The notes under the pieces were generated by a model. That model did not search any database and was not told where the DNA came from. It saw nothing but the letters and a program-made list of their open reading frames with translations. This document shows, piece after piece, positions 4,055-51,177 of a DNA stretch of 64,000 nt (positions are counted from its first letter, which is position 1; each line of letters starts with the position of its first letter). This stretch comes from Melioribacteraceae bacterium (GTDB lineage Bacteria > Bacteroidota > Ignavibacteria > Ignavibacteriales > Melioribacteraceae). The position numbers and the translations under genes are program-made. The DNA lies in the NCBI GenBank assembly GCA_030584085.1, contig CP129490.1, positions 2,699,511 through 2,763,510 on the forward strand. The letters are read 5' to 3'.

Positions 4055-5947
4055 TTAATTCTGATCAAAGTATTCTGAAATGATATCTCTAAATGTCTGT
4101 GCTTCTTTAGAGGAAGGATTAACTTGGTTAACTTCAAAAATTTCTTGCAAGGTACCGAATGCTTCTTGTCTGCTTGAAGAATCACAAATTCTTTCTATTG
4201 CATTTGCGAATTCCTCCATATCGTAATCAAATATTACTTCAATTATTCTTGTCATATTTCTATTTTCTAAAAGATCGGCAATATCAATTCTTTTTGAAAA
4301 ACTTTGTGTACCGAAATCTTTTATAAATTCGTCCTCTATACCTGAATCTTTTTTAGGAATAAGTGTATCGTCAAATAAGTTTTGTTGAGCAATTTCTTCA
4401 TCTGACCCAACTTCATCTTCATCCGTTTCATTTTCTATATCAACCTCAAGTTCATCTTCACTATCTTCTAATTCTTCCTCGGGTAAATCTTCATCGGTAA
4501 TATATTCTTCATCAGCTTCATCTTTGATTTCAGTATCGCTAATTGGAAAGCTATAATCATCATCTACTTCAGCAGGCATATCGTATGATTTCGGCTCCTC
4601 AATTATGAGATCCGGTTCATCTTCTTCAAGTTCGTTATCATCTTTCTGCTCTTCATCTTCTACAAACTCGGATTTTTCCTCTTCATCCGTGTATTCTAAA
4701 ATATCATGTTCATTGGGTTCCTCTTCGTTTTCAGAGATTACCTCAGGAATTACATTATCATCCCTATCGTTATCTTCATAATCGTCAACTGATAATATCA
4801 CCTCTGTATTTTCTTCAGCTTGATCCAATAGATACTCTGCAGGATCATCTGCTTCTGCTAATTCGCTGATTTCTTCACTTTGATTTTCTTCTTCTAAGAT
4901 TTCATCATCTTGAATTTGATCATCCAACTCAACTTCCTCTTCTTCGAAATTAGAGACTTCTTTTTCTTTGTTCGATCTGAGTTTAATTTCTACATCATCT
5001 TCAAAAGTCTTCCGTTCAATTAAATCATCATGTGATTCAGTAAATTCTTCTCTTTCCTCAATCTCTTCATCATGTTCTTCGGGTTGAATTTCTTCCTCTT
5101 TAGTTTCGAATACTTCTTCAGTTTGTTGTTCTTGAACTTTCTCTACTTTAATCTCATCTTTCCTCTCGATTTCAATAATTTCTGTTTTCGGAATAGCCAA
5201 GCCAAGTAAAATATTTCTTAAATCATTCGCATCAATTTTATTCTTTGTTTCCCCCGCCAGTTTATTTTGTAATAAATCTATGTGAGATTCAAGATTTTTT
5301 TCCTTTAGAAAAACCGCTATCGCTTGCAGAGGTATTGCTTTTTGATTCATTGAACCGATATTAAAAAACGAAGACATTGATTTAACTGCTGATTCAAGGA
5401 TATCATTTCCATAAGATTGCAAACTTACATTATCGAATTTTACAAGCAAATTGCTAAATTCGTCTTTACCAAGTGTGATTAATTTTTTCTTATCAAAATA
5501 ATTTCTAATTACTTTTATAAGATGTTTATAAAAATAAGCGTAGTTAAGAATTTGATTGATCTCGGCAACACTTGTGGACTCAGCATTATCAAAAATTAAT
5601 TTTTTAAGCGACCAGTTTGGTCTAATCAAGTAATTAACATTGAATGAAGTTGCGTGAAGTATAACTTTACTTAAAAAGTCCGTTGAAAATTTCTTCTCTT
5701 TCTTTATTTCATCGGCAATCTTGTGAAAATGCTTTGAAATCTGTGGTCCGGAATAATCGAACATAGAATGCTTTAAAAGAGTTTGTCTATCCTCAAAAAT
5801 TCTATATTCAATTTCGGCTGATATATATTGTAGAATTGCCGGATGAATTCCTAGTGGAAGTAATTCAGAAAAAGTAGCAGTTGAACCAAGTTTCTTTACT
5901 TTATTAGAATTAAAATCGTAAATAAATTTTACTTCGCGTTCAAGCAT
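4055..5947 (-). CDS. Uncharacterised protein with a long acidic central region, coupled to obgE
   Basis: I do not recognise a family. The 630-aa product has no signal peptide or membrane span, so it is probably cytoplasmic. Residues 1 to about 265 look globular and mostly helical. Residues about 265-530 are almost only Glu/Asp with scattered hydrophobics, likely disordered. A conserved-looking helical end of about 90 residues follows (DLLENRNMTRIIEVIFDYD). The ATG at 5947 has no clear Shine-Dalgarno. The stop is 2 nt before obgE, making it the first gene of the operon. Such a polyanionic protein next to a ribosome-assembly GTPase could bind ribosomal proteins or act as a scaffold; that is speculation from context. 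Confidence 0.8.
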   Translation of the reverse strand: MLEREVKFIYDFNSNKVKKLGSTATFSELLPLGIHPAILQYISAEIEYRIFEDRQTLLKHSMFDYSGPQISKHFHKIADEIKKEKKFSTDFLSKVILHATSFNVNYLIRPNWSLKKLIFDNAESTSVAEINQILNYAYFYKHLIKVIRNYFDKKKLITLGKDEFSNLLVKFDNVSLQSYGNDILESAVKSMSSFFNIGSMNQKAIPLQAIAVFLKEKNLESHIDLLQNKLAGETKNKIDANDLRNILLGLAIPKTEIIEIERKDEIKVEKVQEQQTEEVFETKEEEIQPEEHDEEIEEREEFTESHDDLIERKTFEDDVEIKLRSNKEKEVSNFEEEEVELDDQIQDDEILEEENQSEEISELAEADDPAEYLLDQAEENTEVILSVDDYEDNDRDDNVIPEVISENEEEPNEHDILEYTDEEEKSEFVEDEEQKDDNELEEDEPDLIIEEPKSYDMPAEVDDDYSFPISDTEIKDEADEEYITDEDLPEEELEDSEDELEVDIENETDEDEVGSDEEIAQQNLFDDTLIPKKDSGIEDEFIKDFGTQSFSKRIDIADLLENRNMTRIIEVIFDYDMEEFANAIERICDSSSRQEAFGTLQEIFEVNQVNPSSKEAQTFRDIISEYFDQN

Positions 5948-43743: not shown

Positions 43744-46700
43744 TTAAATTTTGAGTAGATCTTCCATAATTTGTGAAGCGGAATTATATCTTTTATCTAT
43801 GTCTTTCTCAATACATTTCATAACAATATTATCGATTGTCTTTTCAACTGAATTATTTAACTCAGATGGATAAGGTGGTATCGTGTTAAAGATTGAATGG
43901 ATCAACGCCATTTCATTTTCGCCTGTGAAAGGGAGTTTCTTCGTGAGCATTTGGTAGAGAATAACACCAAAGGAAAAAATATCAGTTCTCTGATCAATTT
44001 GAATATTTGTTATTTGTTCAGGCGCAACATAACCGAGTGTTCCCACAACAGTACCGAGCGATGTCATTGTTGAAACAAGAGGAGATTTCGATAAACCAAA
44101 ATCCATTATTCTAATACTATTGTTTTCATCAAACATTATGTTTTGAGACTTCAAATCACGATGCAGTACATTGTTTTCATGAATGATAATTAAGCCTTCG
44201 CAAATCTCAATCGCAATTTTTTTGAAAGTTCCTTTATCTAACGGAAAGTTATTTGCAACAAATTCTTCAAGCGTCCCGCCGGATAAATATTCCATTGCAA
44301 TATAACTGTGTTCTTCGGTTTCACCGAATTCAAATACTTTTACAATGTTCTTATGATCAATTGATGAGAGCAGTCGTCCTTCACTGATTAATCTTCGCTT
44401 GTTCTCCTCATCTTTTAATAAAGTTGGGTTAATAATTTTAATCGCGACGAGCTTATTGTTTTTCGAATCGAGTGCTTTGAAAACTTTCCCCATTCCCCCG
44501 ACGCCAAGTATTTCCATCAACTTGAAATGTGAGATATATTTACTTTCACGTTCTTCAATATAACGTTTGGAATAATAAGCAAATGCAAACATAAAAAGTG
44601 ACGGTAAAACAATCGGCAGAATCCATTCAAAATAAAAATTAGTTTTAAGTGTAAAGTGGATCAACAGTAAAAAGAAAACAATTATTGTCAGGATAAAATA
44701 CCATTGCTTAATAATTCTAGTTGACTTCCAATGTTTTGTTTGCTGATAAAGCAGCATTGAAACAAAGATCAACAGAGATAATTTGGCTGCTGATAATTTC
44801 CAATCTACCAAGTTGATACTTCTCTGAATTGAATCTCTTATCCTCGTTATATAGTGATTAACCAATGATGATTCGGTTACAGTATAAGTTTTATTCGGCT
44901 CAATATTATTTATTTCTATTTTTATCCCGGACGGATATTCCACCTCAATTAAATAATTCAATGTATCTATTAAACCAAAATGAAGTTCGCTTATATTTTG
45001 CTGCGATAAAGGAGATTCTCCGAAACCAAAATATTTAGTATTACGATATGCTTCTTCGCTATTCTTATTTTTTCCAACAAGAGAAACTTTTGTACCGATC
45101 GCCGTCCTGTTACTTTTGTCGGCATTGAACTTTATTTTGATTGAATTTCCTTCGGATAAATTATTTCGATATAACTTTGCAGTTTCACCGGCTGGGGCTG
45201 AGTTTTTACTGATTCCTATAAATAAATCTAGATCACCGTCATTGTCTATATCACCGAATGAAGGATTACCGGTAAATGATAAACCGATTTGTTCGCTTAC
45301 TTCTGTAAATTTTAAACCGGGAGAGTTAAGATATAGTTTTGAACTAATATATATATCTATATAACCATCATTATTTACATCAGCAGCGTTAAGTATTCCG
45401 CCGGTTGGTTCAGGGTGTTGAATTGCTTCAATAAATCCGGCTTCGGTTGAATAATTAGTAAAATTAGCATCACCGTCATTTAACAACAGCATAGGAGTTT
45501 TACCGCCGTTAAACAAAAATATATCTTGTGTGCCATCATTATTAAAGTCTGCTGAAATTGCAGACATCGAAATTAAATTTTGATTTGACCTAAATACTTC
45601 CGATTCTTTCTCTTCGAATGTAAAATTACCTTTATTCAGATATAATTCGAGAAACTTATTATTCTCGGCAAATCGATAAACAATAAGAATATCGGCAAGC
45701 ATATCATTATTAAAATCATTTATGACAACACCGTAAGCTTGTCTATTTAATTTTTTGTCGATGCCGGTTTGATTGTAAATGTTTGTGAAATTTCCATAAC
45801 CGTCATTTTCAAATAACATATCTTCGCGACTAAAATTAGATATATAAATATCCAGATTACCATCATTGTTGAAGTCAATAAATTTAGCTGAAGTCAGGGC
45901 TAACGTGGCATCAATTATTTCAAGTTCAAGTTTGCTTCTTTCAGCATCTTCGGCAAAATTAAATTCTCCTTTACCAAATGCCAGGTTGTAGTTTAAGTCA
46001 TCTAAAATTTCCAGAAGATCAAACTTATTATCTTTATCCAAATCACCAAGAACTAATGATTGGTTTAAGCTTGCATTGGTAATGCCAATTTGTTCACGTG
46101 AGATTTCCGAGAAAACATTATTTCCGAGGTTTTTATAAACGAGATTTGGTCCACCATCGGAAATTATTGCAAGATCATTAAAGCCATCACTATTACCATC
46201 AAAGAAAGTAGCGGCTCTTCCCTCTTTTCTTATTGATGACGCAGTTGTAATATCCGTAAACGAAAAGCCGAGATTCTGTGAAGTTGTATAAATTCCCGCT
46301 TGTCCGATAACCCAAATTTTATAATCATCGTTTGCGTCTTTAATAAAATCTACATCTTCAAAAATGTCTTCGAATGATTTTATACTTTCAATTTCTTTCC
46401 ACTCTAGCCCATCCCATTCTAATAAAGTTGAACGCGTTCCTGTAATCCATGCTTTTTTTAATCCATCTGAAATTACTGAGGTGAATGAAACTCGGTAATT
46501 ATTTTCAAAATACTGCCATTTACCATTTTCAAATTTTAGAATTGTTCCTCTATCACCGACTATCCAACCGTTGCTAGCGTCAATCATTGAAATTTTACGA
46601 AGATCAGTTTCAACCGGGGAATCAATTCTATTCCATTTTCCATTTTCAAATTTAATAATTACACCTTCGCGTCCGACCGCCCAGCCTAAATCTTTTGAAA

Positions 46701-47289
46701 CCATTTCTATATCGTTTAAGTCACCGAAGTAAATCGATGTTCTCTCAACATTTTTTAACGGACTTTCGAATTCACTCCAAACTTTTCCGTCGTAAAATAA
46801 AATATTTCCGAGTTGACCGATCATCCATGCTGTTCCGTCTTCAAGAATTTCGATTCCATTCCACATCGAGTAATCGGTTGCATCCCACATAACTTTCGGA
46901 AGAATTATTTCATTAAATTTTGAGCCGTCGTATTCAAAAAACCGGGGATGCCAAAAGTTATGATGTGTTTCGTGATGTATAAACCAAATCTTTTCTTCGT
47001 TATACGCAATCTGTGGATTATCGGAATAATCAAATTTAAAGACGGACTCCCATTTGCCATGTTTTAATTGGTACAAATTTCCTTTGATATCATATCCCGC
47101 TCCGCGTGAAATTGCAATTCCTTCATTAATCGATTGCATAATAATTCTTGAACCATGATCAACATTAGCTTGTTTATACCATATTGCATCGCTTTGTAAC
47201 TTTTGATTAAAATCTTTTCGATCTGAACAAGAAGTTAATAGAAGTATAGTAATTACAAATGCCAGTATTTTATTCAGTGTTGGTACCAT
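43744..47289 (-). CDS. Transmembrane Ser/Thr protein kinase with FG-GAP/ASPIC extracytoplasmic sensor
   Basis: An 1181-aa lipoprotein-receptor kinase. The N-terminus has a lipobox LLTSC (Cys21). Residues about 30-335 contain BNR/Ycf48-like repeats (GWAVGREGVIIKFENGKW). FG-GAP/VCBS loops follow to about 690 (DLDKDNKFDLL, DFNNDGNLDIY, DVNNDGYIDIY, DIDNDGDLDLF), then an ASPIC/UnbV domain near 700-810 (NRTAIGTKVSLVG, ELHFGL, VEYPSG). Three membrane helices (about 833-850, 863-882, 887-906) place the kinase (922-1181) in the cytoplasm. All Hanks motifs are intact: GVGGMGKVF, VAIK (Lys951), HRDLKSQN (Asp1045), DFG (1063), APE. The ATG at 47289 is chosen over a TTG five codons upstream. The sigma54 activator gene follows after 2 nt. 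Confidence 0.93.
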   Translation of the reverse strand: MVPTLNKILAFVITILLLTSCSDRKDFNQKLQSDAIWYKQANVDHGSRIIMQSINEGIAISRGAGYDIKGNLYQLKHGKWESVFKFDYSDNPQIAYNEEKIWFIHHETHHNFWHPRFFEYDGSKFNEIILPKVMWDATDYSMWNGIEILEDGTAWMIGQLGNILFYDGKVWSEFESPLKNVERTSIYFGDLNDIEMVSKDLGWAVGREGVIIKFENGKWNRIDSPVETDLRKISMIDASNGWIVGDRGTILKFENGKWQYFENNYRVSFTSVISDGLKKAWITGTRSTLLEWDGLEWKEIESIKSFEDIFEDVDFIKDANDDYKIWVIGQAGIYTTSQNLGFSFTDITTASSIRKEGRAATFFDGNSDGFNDLAIISDGGPNLVYKNLGNNVFSEISREQIGITNASLNQSLVLGDLDKDNKFDLLEILDDLNYNLAFGKGEFNFAEDAERSKLELEIIDATLALTSAKFIDFNNDGNLDIYISNFSREDMLFENDGYGNFTNIYNQTGIDKKLNRQAYGVVINDFNNDMLADILIVYRFAENNKFLELYLNKGNFTFEEKESEVFRSNQNLISMSAISADFNNDGTQDIFLFNGGKTPMLLLNDGDANFTNYSTEAGFIEAIQHPEPTGGILNAADVNNDGYIDIYISSKLYLNSPGLKFTEVSEQIGLSFTGNPSFGDIDNDGDLDLFIGISKNSAPAGETAKLYRNNLSEGNSIKIKFNADKSNRTAIGTKVSLVGKNKNSEEAYRNTKYFGFGESPLSQQNISELHFGLIDTLNYLIEVEYPSGIKIEINNIEPNKTYTVTESSLVNHYITRIRDSIQRSINLVDWKLSAAKLSLLIFVSMLLYQQTKHWKSTRIIKQWYFILTIIVFFLLLIHFTLKTNFYFEWILPIVLPSLFMFAFAYYSKRYIEERESKYISHFKLMEILGVGGMGKVFKALDSKNNKLVAIKIINPTLLKDEENKRRLISEGRLLSSIDHKNIVKVFEFGETEEHSYIAMEYLSGGTLEEFVANNFPLDKGTFKKIAIEICEGLIIIHENNVLHRDLKSQNIMFDENNSIRIMDFGLSKSPLVSTMTSLGTVVGTLGYVAPEQITNIQIDQRTDIFSFGVILYQMLTKKLPFTGENEMALIHSIFNTIPPYPSELNNSVEKTIDNIVMKCIEKDIDKRYNSASQIMEDLLKI

Positions 47290-47362
47290 GAAATAGGATA
47301 ACAAGTTAATAACTCTTTTTTGTAAATTGTCGGACTTAATTTATAAAAATCAGCGAATAATT

Positions 47363-48477: not shown

Positions 48478-48828
48478 TCAATTCACCTTATTCATAGGGT
48501 AATTCATCTGAGATTTTTCCAGACGAATTACCGATTCGAGTTTAGCTAATTCAATAATCTGTTTTCTTGTTCCGGTTGCAGTGAAAATATCTTTTATTAC
48601 TGATTCTACTGAAACTCCGGTTTCTTCAAGTTCGGTTCTCATTTTATCCGTTATTTCAGTATTGCATTTCCCAAGAAACTGAATTTTTTGCTCCGAATCT
48701 TTATTACCGGAATCACTTAATTCCATTCTCAAGCTTTGATCTAATTTATTTTGATAGTCATCATTCATGGTGCTGCATCCAATTAGTAAAAGTATAGGTA
48801 ATAAAACAAACAAAAACTTTTTTTTCAT
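48478..48828 (-). CDS. Lipoprotein resembling the subtilisin propeptide (candidate I9-type inhibitor)
   Basis: A 116-aa protein with a lipobox LLIGC (Cys18). Residues about 48-106 resemble the N-terminal propeptide of the protease encoded 15 nt upstream: VESVIKDIFTATGTRKQII here against VSNIIKDILIAEIPVNKLT there, with a matching beta-alpha-beta layout and the closing VIRLEKSQ against IVEAETAK. Stand-alone propeptide-like proteins of the I9 class are known to inhibit subtilisins. The likely role is a membrane-anchored inhibitor or folding chaperone for the adjacent protease; this is inference from similarity and gene order. ATG 48828 behind AAGGAA. Confidence 0.7.
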   Translation of the reverse strand: MKKKFLFVLLPILLLIGCSTMNDDYQNKLDQSLRMELSDSGNKDSEQKIQFLGKCNTEITDKMRTELEETGVSVESVIKDIFTATGTRKQIIELAKLESVIRLEKSQMNYPMNKVN

Positions 48829-48843
48829 GTAAGTTCCTTTTCA

Positions 48844-51099
48844 TTATTTAATGAACATCATTTTACGAACTTCTTGAAAACTTCCGGCAGTAATACGGTA
48901 AAAATACACACCCGATGATAAACTCTTACCGTCTAATTCCGCTCTGTAAGTTCCCGGAGATTTTAATTCATTCACTAAAGTTTCGATCTCGTTTCCAAGA
49001 ATATCATAGACTTTTATTTTTACTAATTCATTGGAAGGAACACTGTACTCAATAGTAGTAGATGGATTAAATGGGTTTGGGTAGTTTTGCGATAAGCTAA
49101 ATTCAACCGGTACTGAATTATCATCTACCGAAGTAATAATAGATTGTAATGCGGCATAAGCATCTATTCTTCCATATCCAAATTCATTGTTAGGTACGGC
49201 TCCGGTTATTCCATCTACAACCGCTGAATTTTGAAGAGTTGTAAATACTTCTTCGTAAGTAAGGTTTGGATTTTGTTCCAACAACAATGCAACTACACCT
49301 GTGAAATGTGGTGCTGCCATACTGGTTCCTTGAAGATGTACGGTTAGCAGATTTAGTACGAGATCTTGAGGATAAAATGAATCTTGCGAATAACCTGCGG
49401 CAATCCAATGCCCAGGAGCGGAAAAATCAGGTTTAATTCTGCCATCTCTAGTTGGACCGATACTTGAAAAATATGCTCGATCAGTAAAAGTGCCATCAAA
49501 CTGGATTGGACTTCCCCAGATATTTGTCCAAGAAAGTTTTGTAGTAAATGCTCCGACACTAAAAACATTGTATGCTGTCGAAGGAGAACCAATAGTCATA
49601 ACATTGTCACCTGGGAAAATTTTATTGCCCGGATCAGAATCAGCAGTAAATTCTCCGTTAACTATCCAAGCATTTAGTGTTGATGAACCATATGTGTATA
49701 ACGAAAAAACATAATTACTAAAATCAGCATCAGGTTCATAAATAAATTGCATTCCAAATAAAAATGGCTCACCTGTTAGAGATTGGTCTACAAAATTAGG
49801 GTGTCCGCTCATATTCAAAGTGCCGATGCTATTATCATCAACTACTACATCAACATTCTGTTGAATCTGATTAAAACTTACAGCCGGTGAAGTGTAAAGA
49901 ACTGTTGATAAATCTGCAGAATAAATTTTTATACCGAAAGTGTAATTATCACTTTGCGGGTAACCGACTAAAAATGTTTGTTCATCATCAACATTTTCGA
50001 CCTCCCAATAAGTTTCGGAAGCTTCTTCAATAGAGCTACCGCTCATTTCATATTGAAGATGATAATAATTACTTCCTTCATTTCCCGCCGCCGCAACAAT
50101 TAACTTTCCGGGTCCAACTAAATTTGTCAACGCTTGTTCATATAAAGTTGTACCGGTGTTACCATAAAGCCCGCCTAAGCTCAAATTAATTACGGCAGGC
50201 TTTCCTAATTGATCAGCTCTTTTGAAAATATAATCACAACCATTTACAATATCTGTATCAGCAAAACCAGGTCCGAGCCTATAACCTTTTACGAAAACAA
50301 TATCGGCTTCGGGAGCAACTCCATCAAGCGTGTAATCATTTCCCCCGGCATTACCGGCGGCTGTACTTGCAACATGAGTACCGTGACCATCGTCATCAAT
50401 TTGATTTGAATTCTGCTGATCTAAATCTTCTTTTGTGTATTCCGTACCATAGTCAAATTCTGCCGGCGGATTTGTATTATCGGACATATCCCATAAATAT
50501 AAAATCCGGTTTCCGTTTGCATTACTAAATGATGGATGTTTCCAATCAATTCCACTATCTAATACACCAACAACTACATCTTTTCCTTTATAAGCTTTGG
50601 GTAAATTTTCTCCAGCGTGAATTTTATCAACGTTAATGTATGTTAAGCTTTCATCCAGAAATGATTCTGAATATTTGGCTGTTTCTGCTTCAACAATATC
50701 TTCAGTGAAGACAATGTTAGTTAATTTATTAACAGGAATTTCAGCAATTAAGATATCCTTAATAATATTGCTAACATTTCCACCTTCTGATTCGATTAGA
50801 GATTGTGTTTTATAGGGAGAAATTGATTTAATAAATACGGAAACAAATAGCATTTCATCTATCTTTTTAATAACCGGATTTCCAGCGAACAGTTTTGACT
50901 CTTTAATGTTATCTATATTATATGCCAGTTGATTGTACACCAAGTTTTGAATGGTAAAATCTACCTTAGATAAATTCGCACTTGTGATTCCAGCATTTTC
51001 ATAAACCTTTTTTGTTTCTGAAATGCTTTGTGCATTTATGCTAAACGTGATCACCAAAAATATCATTATGATAGTAGTGATCCATTTTTTCGAATCCAT
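48844..51099 (-). CDS. T9SS-secreted subtilisin-like serine protease (S8)
   Basis: A 751-aa secreted protease. A signal peptide (1 to about 23) is followed by an I9-like propeptide (about 80-142, NVSNIIKDILIAEIPVNKL), then the S8 catalytic domain: Asp181 in VVGVLDSGIDW, His239 in DDDGHGTHVAS, Ser near 593 in GTSMAAPHFTGV, with the oxyanion Asn in IVAAAGNEGS. An insert of about 200 residues between His and Ser regions probably forms a PA/beta-sandwich module. It ends in a sorting domain (LSQNYPNPFNPSTTIEY, final KMMFIK). ATG 51099 has GAGGGAGA upstream; a start 15 codons earlier is rejected. It shares an operon with the propeptide-like lipoprotein. Confidence 0.95.
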   Translation of the reverse strand: MDSKKWITTIIMIFLVITFSINAQSISETKKVYENAGITSANLSKVDFTIQNLVYNQLAYNIDNIKESKLFAGNPVIKKIDEMLFVSVFIKSISPYKTQSLIESEGGNVSNIIKDILIAEIPVNKLTNIVFTEDIVEAETAKYSESFLDESLTYINVDKIHAGENLPKAYKGKDVVVGVLDSGIDWKHPSFSNANGNRILYLWDMSDNTNPPAEFDYGTEYTKEDLDQQNSNQIDDDGHGTHVASTAAGNAGGNDYTLDGVAPEADIVFVKGYRLGPGFADTDIVNGCDYIFKRADQLGKPAVINLSLGGLYGNTGTTLYEQALTNLVGPGKLIVAAAGNEGSNYYHLQYEMSGSSIEEASETYWEVENVDDEQTFLVGYPQSDNYTFGIKIYSADLSTVLYTSPAVSFNQIQQNVDVVVDDNSIGTLNMSGHPNFVDQSLTGEPFLFGMQFIYEPDADFSNYVFSLYTYGSSTLNAWIVNGEFTADSDPGNKIFPGDNVMTIGSPSTAYNVFSVGAFTTKLSWTNIWGSPIQFDGTFTDRAYFSSIGPTRDGRIKPDFSAPGHWIAAGYSQDSFYPQDLVLNLLTVHLQGTSMAAPHFTGVVALLLEQNPNLTYEEVFTTLQNSAVVDGITGAVPNNEFGYGRIDAYAALQSIITSVDDNSVPVEFSLSQNYPNPFNPSTTIEYSVPSNELVKIKVYDILGNEIETLVNELKSPGTYRAELDGKSLSSGVYFYRITAGSFQEVRKMMFIK

Positions 51100-51177
51100 A
51101 ACAGATTCTCCCTCAATAATTATTAAACTAATTGATTGCTTCAACCTTCTTAACGGTAGTAACGGACAAACCAGGTT

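What the first reader, a model, noticed from the sequence alone, without database searches (positions are those of the whole stretch)
48478..51099. Stand-alone lipoprotein that mirrors the propeptide of the subtilisin encoded just upstream
The 116-aa lipoprotein shows the same pattern over about 60 residues as the protease propeptide (VIKDIFTATGT against IIKDILIAEIP, followed by a matching helix and closing strand). Gene order and a 15-nt gap suggest joint expression. Propeptides are autoinhibitors and I9-type single-domain inhibitors are known. A membrane-anchored copy could protect the producer's envelope from its own protease before or during T9SS export, a self-immunity arrangement I have not seen described for T9SS cargo.
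Basis: partly seen in the sequence, partly recalled or inferred. Interest (0 to 1): 0.72.

Follow-up and report, generated by a model that had tools for sequence, protein, structure and literature searches.

The report
Lipid-anchored propeptide mimic beside its protease
Next to a secreted subtilisin-like protease, this bacterium and many relatives carry a small lipid-anchored protein that is a stand-alone relative of the protease's own inhibitory propeptide, most likely a built-in brake that keeps the exported protease from damaging the cell that makes it.

Summary
The 116-aa lipoprotein (48478-48828, minus strand) is homologous to the propeptide of the T9SS-tailed S8 subtilase encoded 15 nt upstream. 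Profile-profile score is 54.8; the best of 200 shuffled controls is 20.9. [quoted passage not shown] The pair is conserved: 26 clean lipoprotein/subtilase pairs across the phylum, on one strand and nearly all 2-50 nt apart, in both gene orders. In 97 relatives, 12 of 13 close homologues of the subtilase have the lipoprotein next door; the 13th is in tandem with the window's pair. Lipoproteins end where the propeptide would be cleaved, and their tails resemble the cognate propeptide's tail. A second, sequence-unrelated pair of the same design lies 10 kb from the window. Best explanation: an envelope-anchored, product-like trans-inhibitor of the cognate protease (self-protection). This is untested biochemically; my docking model was inconclusive.

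The parts
48478..48828 (-). Lipoprotein gene, 116 aa: lipidated stand-alone propeptide mimic
   Evidence: 12 homologous loci in 97 relatives including own, more across the phylum
48775..48828 (-). Lipoprotein signal peptide and lipobox LIGC, Cys18 lipidation site
   Evidence: Sequence; Cys invariant in the 13-row alignment
48718..48747 (-). N-terminal KLDxxLxxEL segment of the lipoprotein (residues 28-37), mirrored in the protease pro-region as KVDFTIQNLV
   Evidence: K28 and L33 invariant; matching motif found in lipoprotein and protease of most pairs
48511..48690 (-). [quoted passage not shown]
   Evidence: AlphaFold2 block pLDDT about 88-93; Foldseek top hits mostly subtilisin propeptides; hhalign
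48481..48516 (-). C-terminal segment of the lipoprotein after the conserved strand-4 Glu104 (residues 105-116); predicted to lie in the protease active-site cleft
   Evidence: Tail median 9 residues, range 6-12, in 26 homologues against 8 residues to the conserved junction in the propeptides; tail resembles cognate propeptide tail, permutation p 0.0002
48844..51099 (-). S8 subtilase P0002, 751 aa from ATG (766 aa from TTG at 51144), triad Asp181/His239/Ser593 intact
   Evidence: Pfam Peptidase_S8 1.5e-49; triad
50659..50862 (-). Propeptide domain of the subtilase (about residues 80-147); predicted cleavage just before the conserved LDxS motif (Leu148-Asp149)
   Evidence: Profile matches BPN'/subtilisin E prosegments weakly but as best hits; motif spacing
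48859..49083 (-). T9SS C-terminal sorting domain of the subtilase
   Evidence: Por_Secre_tail 3.4e-11; SprA present in the genome; 127 sorting-tail matches in the genome
51322..53559 (-). Tandem paralogous T9SS subtilase P0003 (59% identical), no lipoprotein of its own; possible second target

Best explanation
The lipoprotein is a stand-alone, lipid-anchored relative of the pro-region of its neighbouring T9SS-exported subtilase. It most likely acts in trans as a product-like inhibitor. Its beta-sheet sits on the catalytic domain where the propeptide sits, its strand-4 Glu caps the surface helices, and its C-terminus, which ends about where the propeptide would be cleaved, occupies the S4-S1 subsites without a following peptide bond. 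Being anchored in the envelope and made from the same gene pair, it would silence protease that matures too early in the periplasm or returns to the producer's surface, while protease released to the medium stays active. Shown here: homology, fold, lipobox, pair conservation, intact protease triad, tail length, tail covariation. Inferred: binding, inhibition, outer-membrane location, protective role.
For: Homology to propeptides with controls. Fold: strand-helix-strand-strand-helix-strand, block pLDDT about 88-93; Foldseek best matches are prosubtilisin E, BPN' prosegment, Tk-SP and CspB, probability 0.97-1.00. Pairing: 26 clean pairs, same strand, gaps 2-50 nt except one overlap from an uncertain start, lipoprotein 3' of the protease in 6 and 5' in 20. 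All partner proteases keep the triad; those scanned by Pfam carry S8 plus a T9SS tail, though in one (G100) the sorting-tail match is below Pfam's cut-off. In 97 relatives, 12 of 13 close homologues of P0002 (E below 1e-120) have the lipoprotein adjacent; the other is P0003, in tandem with the window's pair. Lipoprotein and protease distances correlate, r 0.82, best of 5000 permutations 0.39. Capping Glu in 22 of 26, tail median 9 residues. Tail positions +5 to +8 match the cognate propeptide, p 0.0002 with one pair per close clade; the signal is concentrated in strand 2 and the tail and absent around helix 2. A second lipoprotein unrelated in sequence to the first resembles its own neighbouring subtilase's pro-region, BLAST E 1e-25. 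Precedents: Plasmodium SUB1-ProM, a stand-alone propeptide-like inhibitor adjacent to subtilase genes with the same capping Glu (PMC6993865); potempins (PMC7296668).
Against: No binding or inhibition data. The docking attempt was uninformative. The C-terminal tail is disordered in the free model (pLDDT about 41). Four of 26 lack the capping Glu. Most of the genome's other S8 proteases have no such partner, so any need for protection is selective. Tail covariation is partly confounded by shared ancestry; three distant pairs with short tails or unclear alignment were left out, and the near-duplicate SURF_28 was not counted.
Confidence: 0.68

Rival explanations
1. Trans-acting folding factor: the lipoprotein supplies the chaperone function of a propeptide, helping the periplasmic subtilase fold or refold before T9SS export, as Aeromonas ORF2 does for the serine protease ASP.
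For: Propeptide-type domains are folding chaperones by family knowledge. [quoted passage not shown]
Against: ASP lacks a propeptide, whereas the subtilases inspected here keep their own, so a second one is not needed for folding. Most S8 genes of the genome manage without such a partner.
Confidence: 0.15
2. Surface docking or retention factor: the lipoprotein binds the mature protease to hold or present it on the outer membrane rather than to silence it, as PrcB is proposed to do for dentilisin of Treponema.
For: PrcB is a lipoprotein encoded in the operon of the subtilisin-like PrtP, interacts with it, is proposed to help anchor the complex, and PrtP is not detected without it (PMC8167434).
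Against: The domain is specifically propeptide-like and its tail ends at the position of the propeptide cleavage site, which predicts occupation of the active site. T9SS cargo has its own attachment or release route.
Confidence: 0.1
3. Inhibitor of other proteases (tandem paralogue P0003, other subtilases of the cell, or foreign proteases), with adjacency to P0002 incidental.
For: The own lipoprotein scores higher against the propeptide of a distant paralogue (82) than against its neighbour's (50). P0003 is a close tandem paralogue.
Against: Adjacency kept across the phylum in both gene orders, distance correlation and tail covariation with the neighbour.
Confidence: 0.05
4. Chance likeness of unrelated ferredoxin-like lipoproteins.
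For: The fold class is common and the single-pair score is modest.
Against: Shuffle and reversal controls, Foldseek top ranks dominated by propeptides, conserved pairing.
Confidence: 0.02

Closest known systems
Potempins of Tannerella forsythia with the KLIKK peptidases (PMC4404884, PMC7296668)
   Same: Small lipoprotein encoded directly beside a T9SS-exported protease; inhibitor specific for the co-expressed protease; self-protection role.
   Different: From memory of the potempin paper, which I could not read here, potempins are beta-barrels unrelated to propeptides. KLIKK potempin genes precede the protease, whereas the order varies here. Here the inhibitor-like domain is of propeptide type and the pairs occur throughout the phylum.
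Stand-alone propeptide-like inhibitors of subtilisins (MEROPS I9: POIA1, yeast peptidase B inhibitor, Arabidopsis SPI-1; also TgMIC5 and Plasmodium SUB1-ProM; PMC6993865)
   Same: Propeptide fold as a separate gene product; capping Glu; SUB1-ProM lies next to subtilase genes and inhibits one of them.
   Different: All are eukaryotic and, as far as I know, soluble; none lipidated, none paired with a T9SS cargo. This family does not reach Pfam Inhibitor_I9.
ORF2 of Aeromonas sobria serine protease (PMC5638518)
   Same: Separate bacterial gene beside a subtilase; its C-terminus occupies the catalytic site; inhibits and chaperones.
   Different: ASP has no propeptide; ORF2 shares no sequence similarity with propeptides (from memory of its structure paper). 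Here the protease has a propeptide and the partner is related to it.
PrcB of the Treponema dentilisin complex (PMC8167434)
   Same: Lipoprotein encoded in the operon of a subtilisin-like protease.
   Different: Described as unique to oral spirochetes; required for presence of the protease and proposed to anchor the complex, no propeptide likeness reported in the passages read.

Membership tests
Pfam Inhibitor_I9 (PF05922) | Score above the curated cut-off | tested here: not met
   No match for the lipoprotein or homologues; the own-genome search gives one sub-threshold hit elsewhere
[quoted passage not shown]
   AlphaFold2; Foldseek probability 1.00 to prosubtilisin E and BPN' prosegment, TM 0.70-0.74 by propeptide length
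Subtilisin propeptide / I9-type fold | Sequence homology to a subtilase propeptide | tested here: met
   hhalign with shuffled controls
Stand-alone I9-type inhibitor | Separate gene product, C-terminus near the position of the propeptide cleavage site, capping acidic residue | tested here: met
   Separate gene with lipobox; tail 6-12 residues; Glu in 22 of 26
Stand-alone I9-type inhibitor | Inhibits a subtilase | not testable with these tools
   Needs an enzyme assay; fused-chain docking model inconclusive
Potempins | Small lipoprotein gene adjacent to a T9SS protease gene | tested here: met
   26 pairs; S8 plus T9SS tail by Pfam in the partners scanned
Potempins | Potempin beta-barrel fold or sequence | tested here: not met
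   Predicted alpha/beta propeptide fold, not a barrel; potempin folds are from memory and no potempin sequence was compared
T9SS cargo (the protease) | C-terminal sorting domain and a T9SS in the genome | tested here: met
   Por_Secre_tail, SprA
Outer-membrane lipoprotein | Signal peptide II and outer-membrane sorting | tested here: inconclusive
   Lipobox and invariant Cys present; membrane and side cannot be tested here

The most novel reading that the evidence does not exclude
Making a lipid-anchored copy of a protease's own pro-region is a recurrent way for bacteria of this phylum to gain immunity to their T9SS proteases. It has happened at least twice, in two lineages unrelated in sequence. 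In the second lineage the lipidated pro-domain also sits, with an extra C-terminal domain, beside a papain-like T9SS protease.
Probability: 0.5. Interest if true: 0.76.

Novelty: new variant of a known kind. Interest (0 to 1): 0.62.

Why it matters
If true, it shows how a cell can survive exporting broad proteases through the T9SS by anchoring a copy of the propeptide in its own envelope, and it gives a simple origin for immunity proteins: duplication of a domain the enzyme already carries. It predicts cognate protease-inhibitor pairs in many uncharacterised genomes and suggests small, specific subtilase inhibitors. It also provides an annotation for lipoproteins that now match no Pfam family above its cut-off.

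Tried and rejected
Pfam and NCBIfam scans of the lipoprotein gave only chance-level hits. The viral-contig search gave one phage hit (L051) judged a chance match. The PDB sequence search with the lipoprotein profile found nothing relevant; the propeptide profile did. The fused-chain AlphaFold2 job, reading through the two in-frame stops between protease and lipoprotein so that one chain held both, gave lipoprotein pLDDT 27-50, so no docking claim is made. I checked whether the lipoprotein is a recent copy of its own neighbour's propeptide: it is not; it often scores as well or better against other propeptides, and the tree puts most lipoproteins apart from the propeptides, with too few columns to count origins. 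Partner proteases that failed a motif search (L084, L086 and others) looked catalytically dead at first, but the alignment shows intact triads. One weak stand-alone hit (L100) has no S8 neighbour. The promoter and terminator scan was no better than shuffles, so joint transcription rests on gene spacing only.

Full report
What is there. On the minus strand three genes lie in a row: subtilase P0003 (51322-53559), subtilase P0002 (48844-51099) and the 116-aa lipoprotein (48478-48828), 15 nt after P0002. Both subtilases are S8 peptidases with T9SS sorting tails and intact triads. The genome carries SprA and 127 sorting-tail matches. The named contigs holding close homologues are Ignavibacteriales or Melioribacter records.

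Is the likeness real? For the single pair it is modest (z about 4.3). For families it is decisive. Thirteen lipoproteins against their propeptides give hhalign score 54.8, E 6e-10; 200 column shuffles never exceed 20.9 and the reversed alignment gives 9.7. With 26 pairs the E-value is 9e-14. The propeptide profile's best PDB hits, though weak (E 0.07), are the prosegments of subtilisins BPN' and E. Foldseek ranks prosubtilisin E, BPN' prosegment, Tk-SP, CspB and EpiP at the top. The N-terminal KLDxxLxxEL stretch of the lipoprotein is also echoed in the protease pro-regions, so the whole pro-region, not only the core, is mirrored.

Is the pair conserved? Searching by lipoprotein sequence alone, 97 relatives gave 12 confident loci and 395 genomes of the phylum gave more. 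Reading the neighbourhoods gives 26 clean pairs. In each, the lipoprotein is next to an S8 subtilase on the same strand; gaps are 2-50 nt except one overlap from an uncertain start. The lipoprotein is 3' of the protease in six and 5' in twenty, so adjacency outlived rearrangement. One further copy is frameshifted (L094) and one weak hit has no S8 neighbour (L100). All partners keep the triad; those scanned by Pfam are S8 with a T9SS tail, the tail match being below cut-off in one. In the reverse direction, 13 close P0002 homologues (E below 1e-120) exist in the 97 relatives; 12 have the lipoprotein adjacent and the 13th is P0003, in tandem with the window's pair. More distant S8 genes have no hit to this lipoprotein beside them. 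Lipoprotein and protease distances correlate at r 0.82, which shows joint inheritance and not by itself interaction.

A second case. Another subtilase of the same genome, about 10 kb outside the window (L194), has a 172-aa lipoprotein just upstream that is 32% identical to that protease's own pro-region over 155 residues, E 1e-25. It is unrelated in sequence to the first lipoprotein. A homologous pair exists in G034 (L205). In G035 and G048 the same pro-domain lies in a 265-268-aa lipoprotein beside a papain-like protease; in G035 the protease was confirmed as C1 with a T9SS tail. The other S8 genes I inspected have no small lipoprotein of this kind next door.

How it probably works. In solved complexes a propeptide packs its sheet on two surface helices of the enzyme, capped by acidic residues, and threads its C-terminus through the active site (PMC6993865, and general knowledge of these complexes). 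In the propeptides here, eight residues separate the capping acidic residue from a conserved [LMIN]DxS-type motif in nearly all pairs, which I take as the cleavage point. In the lipoproteins the capping Glu is kept in 22 of 26 and the protein ends 6-12 residues later, median 9. Residues +5 to +8, the presumed P4-P1, resemble those of the cognate propeptide more than of others: p 0.0002 with one pair per close clade. Along the domain this cognate signal is strong in strand 2 and the tail and absent around helix 2, as expected if the sheet and tail, not the helices, face the enzyme. Shared ancestry inflates these values, so I treat them as supportive, not decisive. A product-like trans-inhibitor anchored in the envelope explains all of this. 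The chaperone and anchor rivals are weaker because the protease keeps its own propeptide and because the tail stops at the cleavage position.

What failed. Reading through the two in-frame stops between protease and lipoprotein gave a natural single chain for docking, but its model was poor (mean pLDDT 64.5, lipoprotein part 27-50). Inhibition, location and protection remain inferred.

Known or new. Potempins already show lipoprotein inhibitors paired with T9SS proteases (PMC4404884, PMC7296668); their barrel folds are from memory. Stand-alone propeptide inhibitors are known in eukaryotes, once beside the subtilase genes (PMC6993865). ORF2 of Aeromonas is an external chaperone and inhibitor (PMC5638518). 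I found no paper describing lipidated propeptide mimics in this phylum, within a library that lacks most subscription journals. I therefore rate it a new variant of a known kind.

Noticed in passing
L194:4931-5449 (lipoprotein) and L194:2215-4914 (S8); genome position 2686000-2694000, about 10 kb left of the window: Second, sequence-unrelated lipoprotein that resembles the pro-region of its own adjacent T9SS subtilase (BLAST E 1e-25); homologous pair in G034 (L205).
   Followed up: partly
L207:2508-3305 with L207:3333-4991; L208:2717-3523 with L208:3553-5208: Lipoproteins of 265-268 aa combining the second family's pro-domain with an unknown C-terminal domain, directly upstream of a papain-like protease (the L207 one confirmed as C1 with a T9SS tail): possibly an inhibitor of a different protease class.
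   Followed up: partly
window 48640-48840 against L004: Between the window and the near-identical MAG SURF_28 (mostly 98-100% DNA identity around) the signal peptide and N-terminal half of the lipoprotein gene are only 68-80% identical: local allele replacement or strong diversification of the inhibitor.
   Followed up: partly
L041 and L038 (both genome G002): One genome holds two lipoprotein/subtilase pairs with opposite gene order (lipoprotein 5' in L041, 3' in L038).
   Followed up: no
L094 around 5101-5459: Lipoprotein copy next to an intact S8 gene appears frameshifted (match split from its 99-aa ORF): assembly error or decaying copy.
   Followed up: no
L097:1365-2237: A different 290-aa lipoprotein-like protein lies 15 nt upstream of another S8 gene in G070; not related to the families studied as far as inspected.
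   Followed up: no
window 43744-47304: 1186-aa protein with lipoprotein-like N-terminus, FG-GAP-like repeats and a C-terminal serine/threonine kinase-like domain (read by eye, not scanned), in the gene neighbourhood and conserved in L004 and L038.
   Followed up: no
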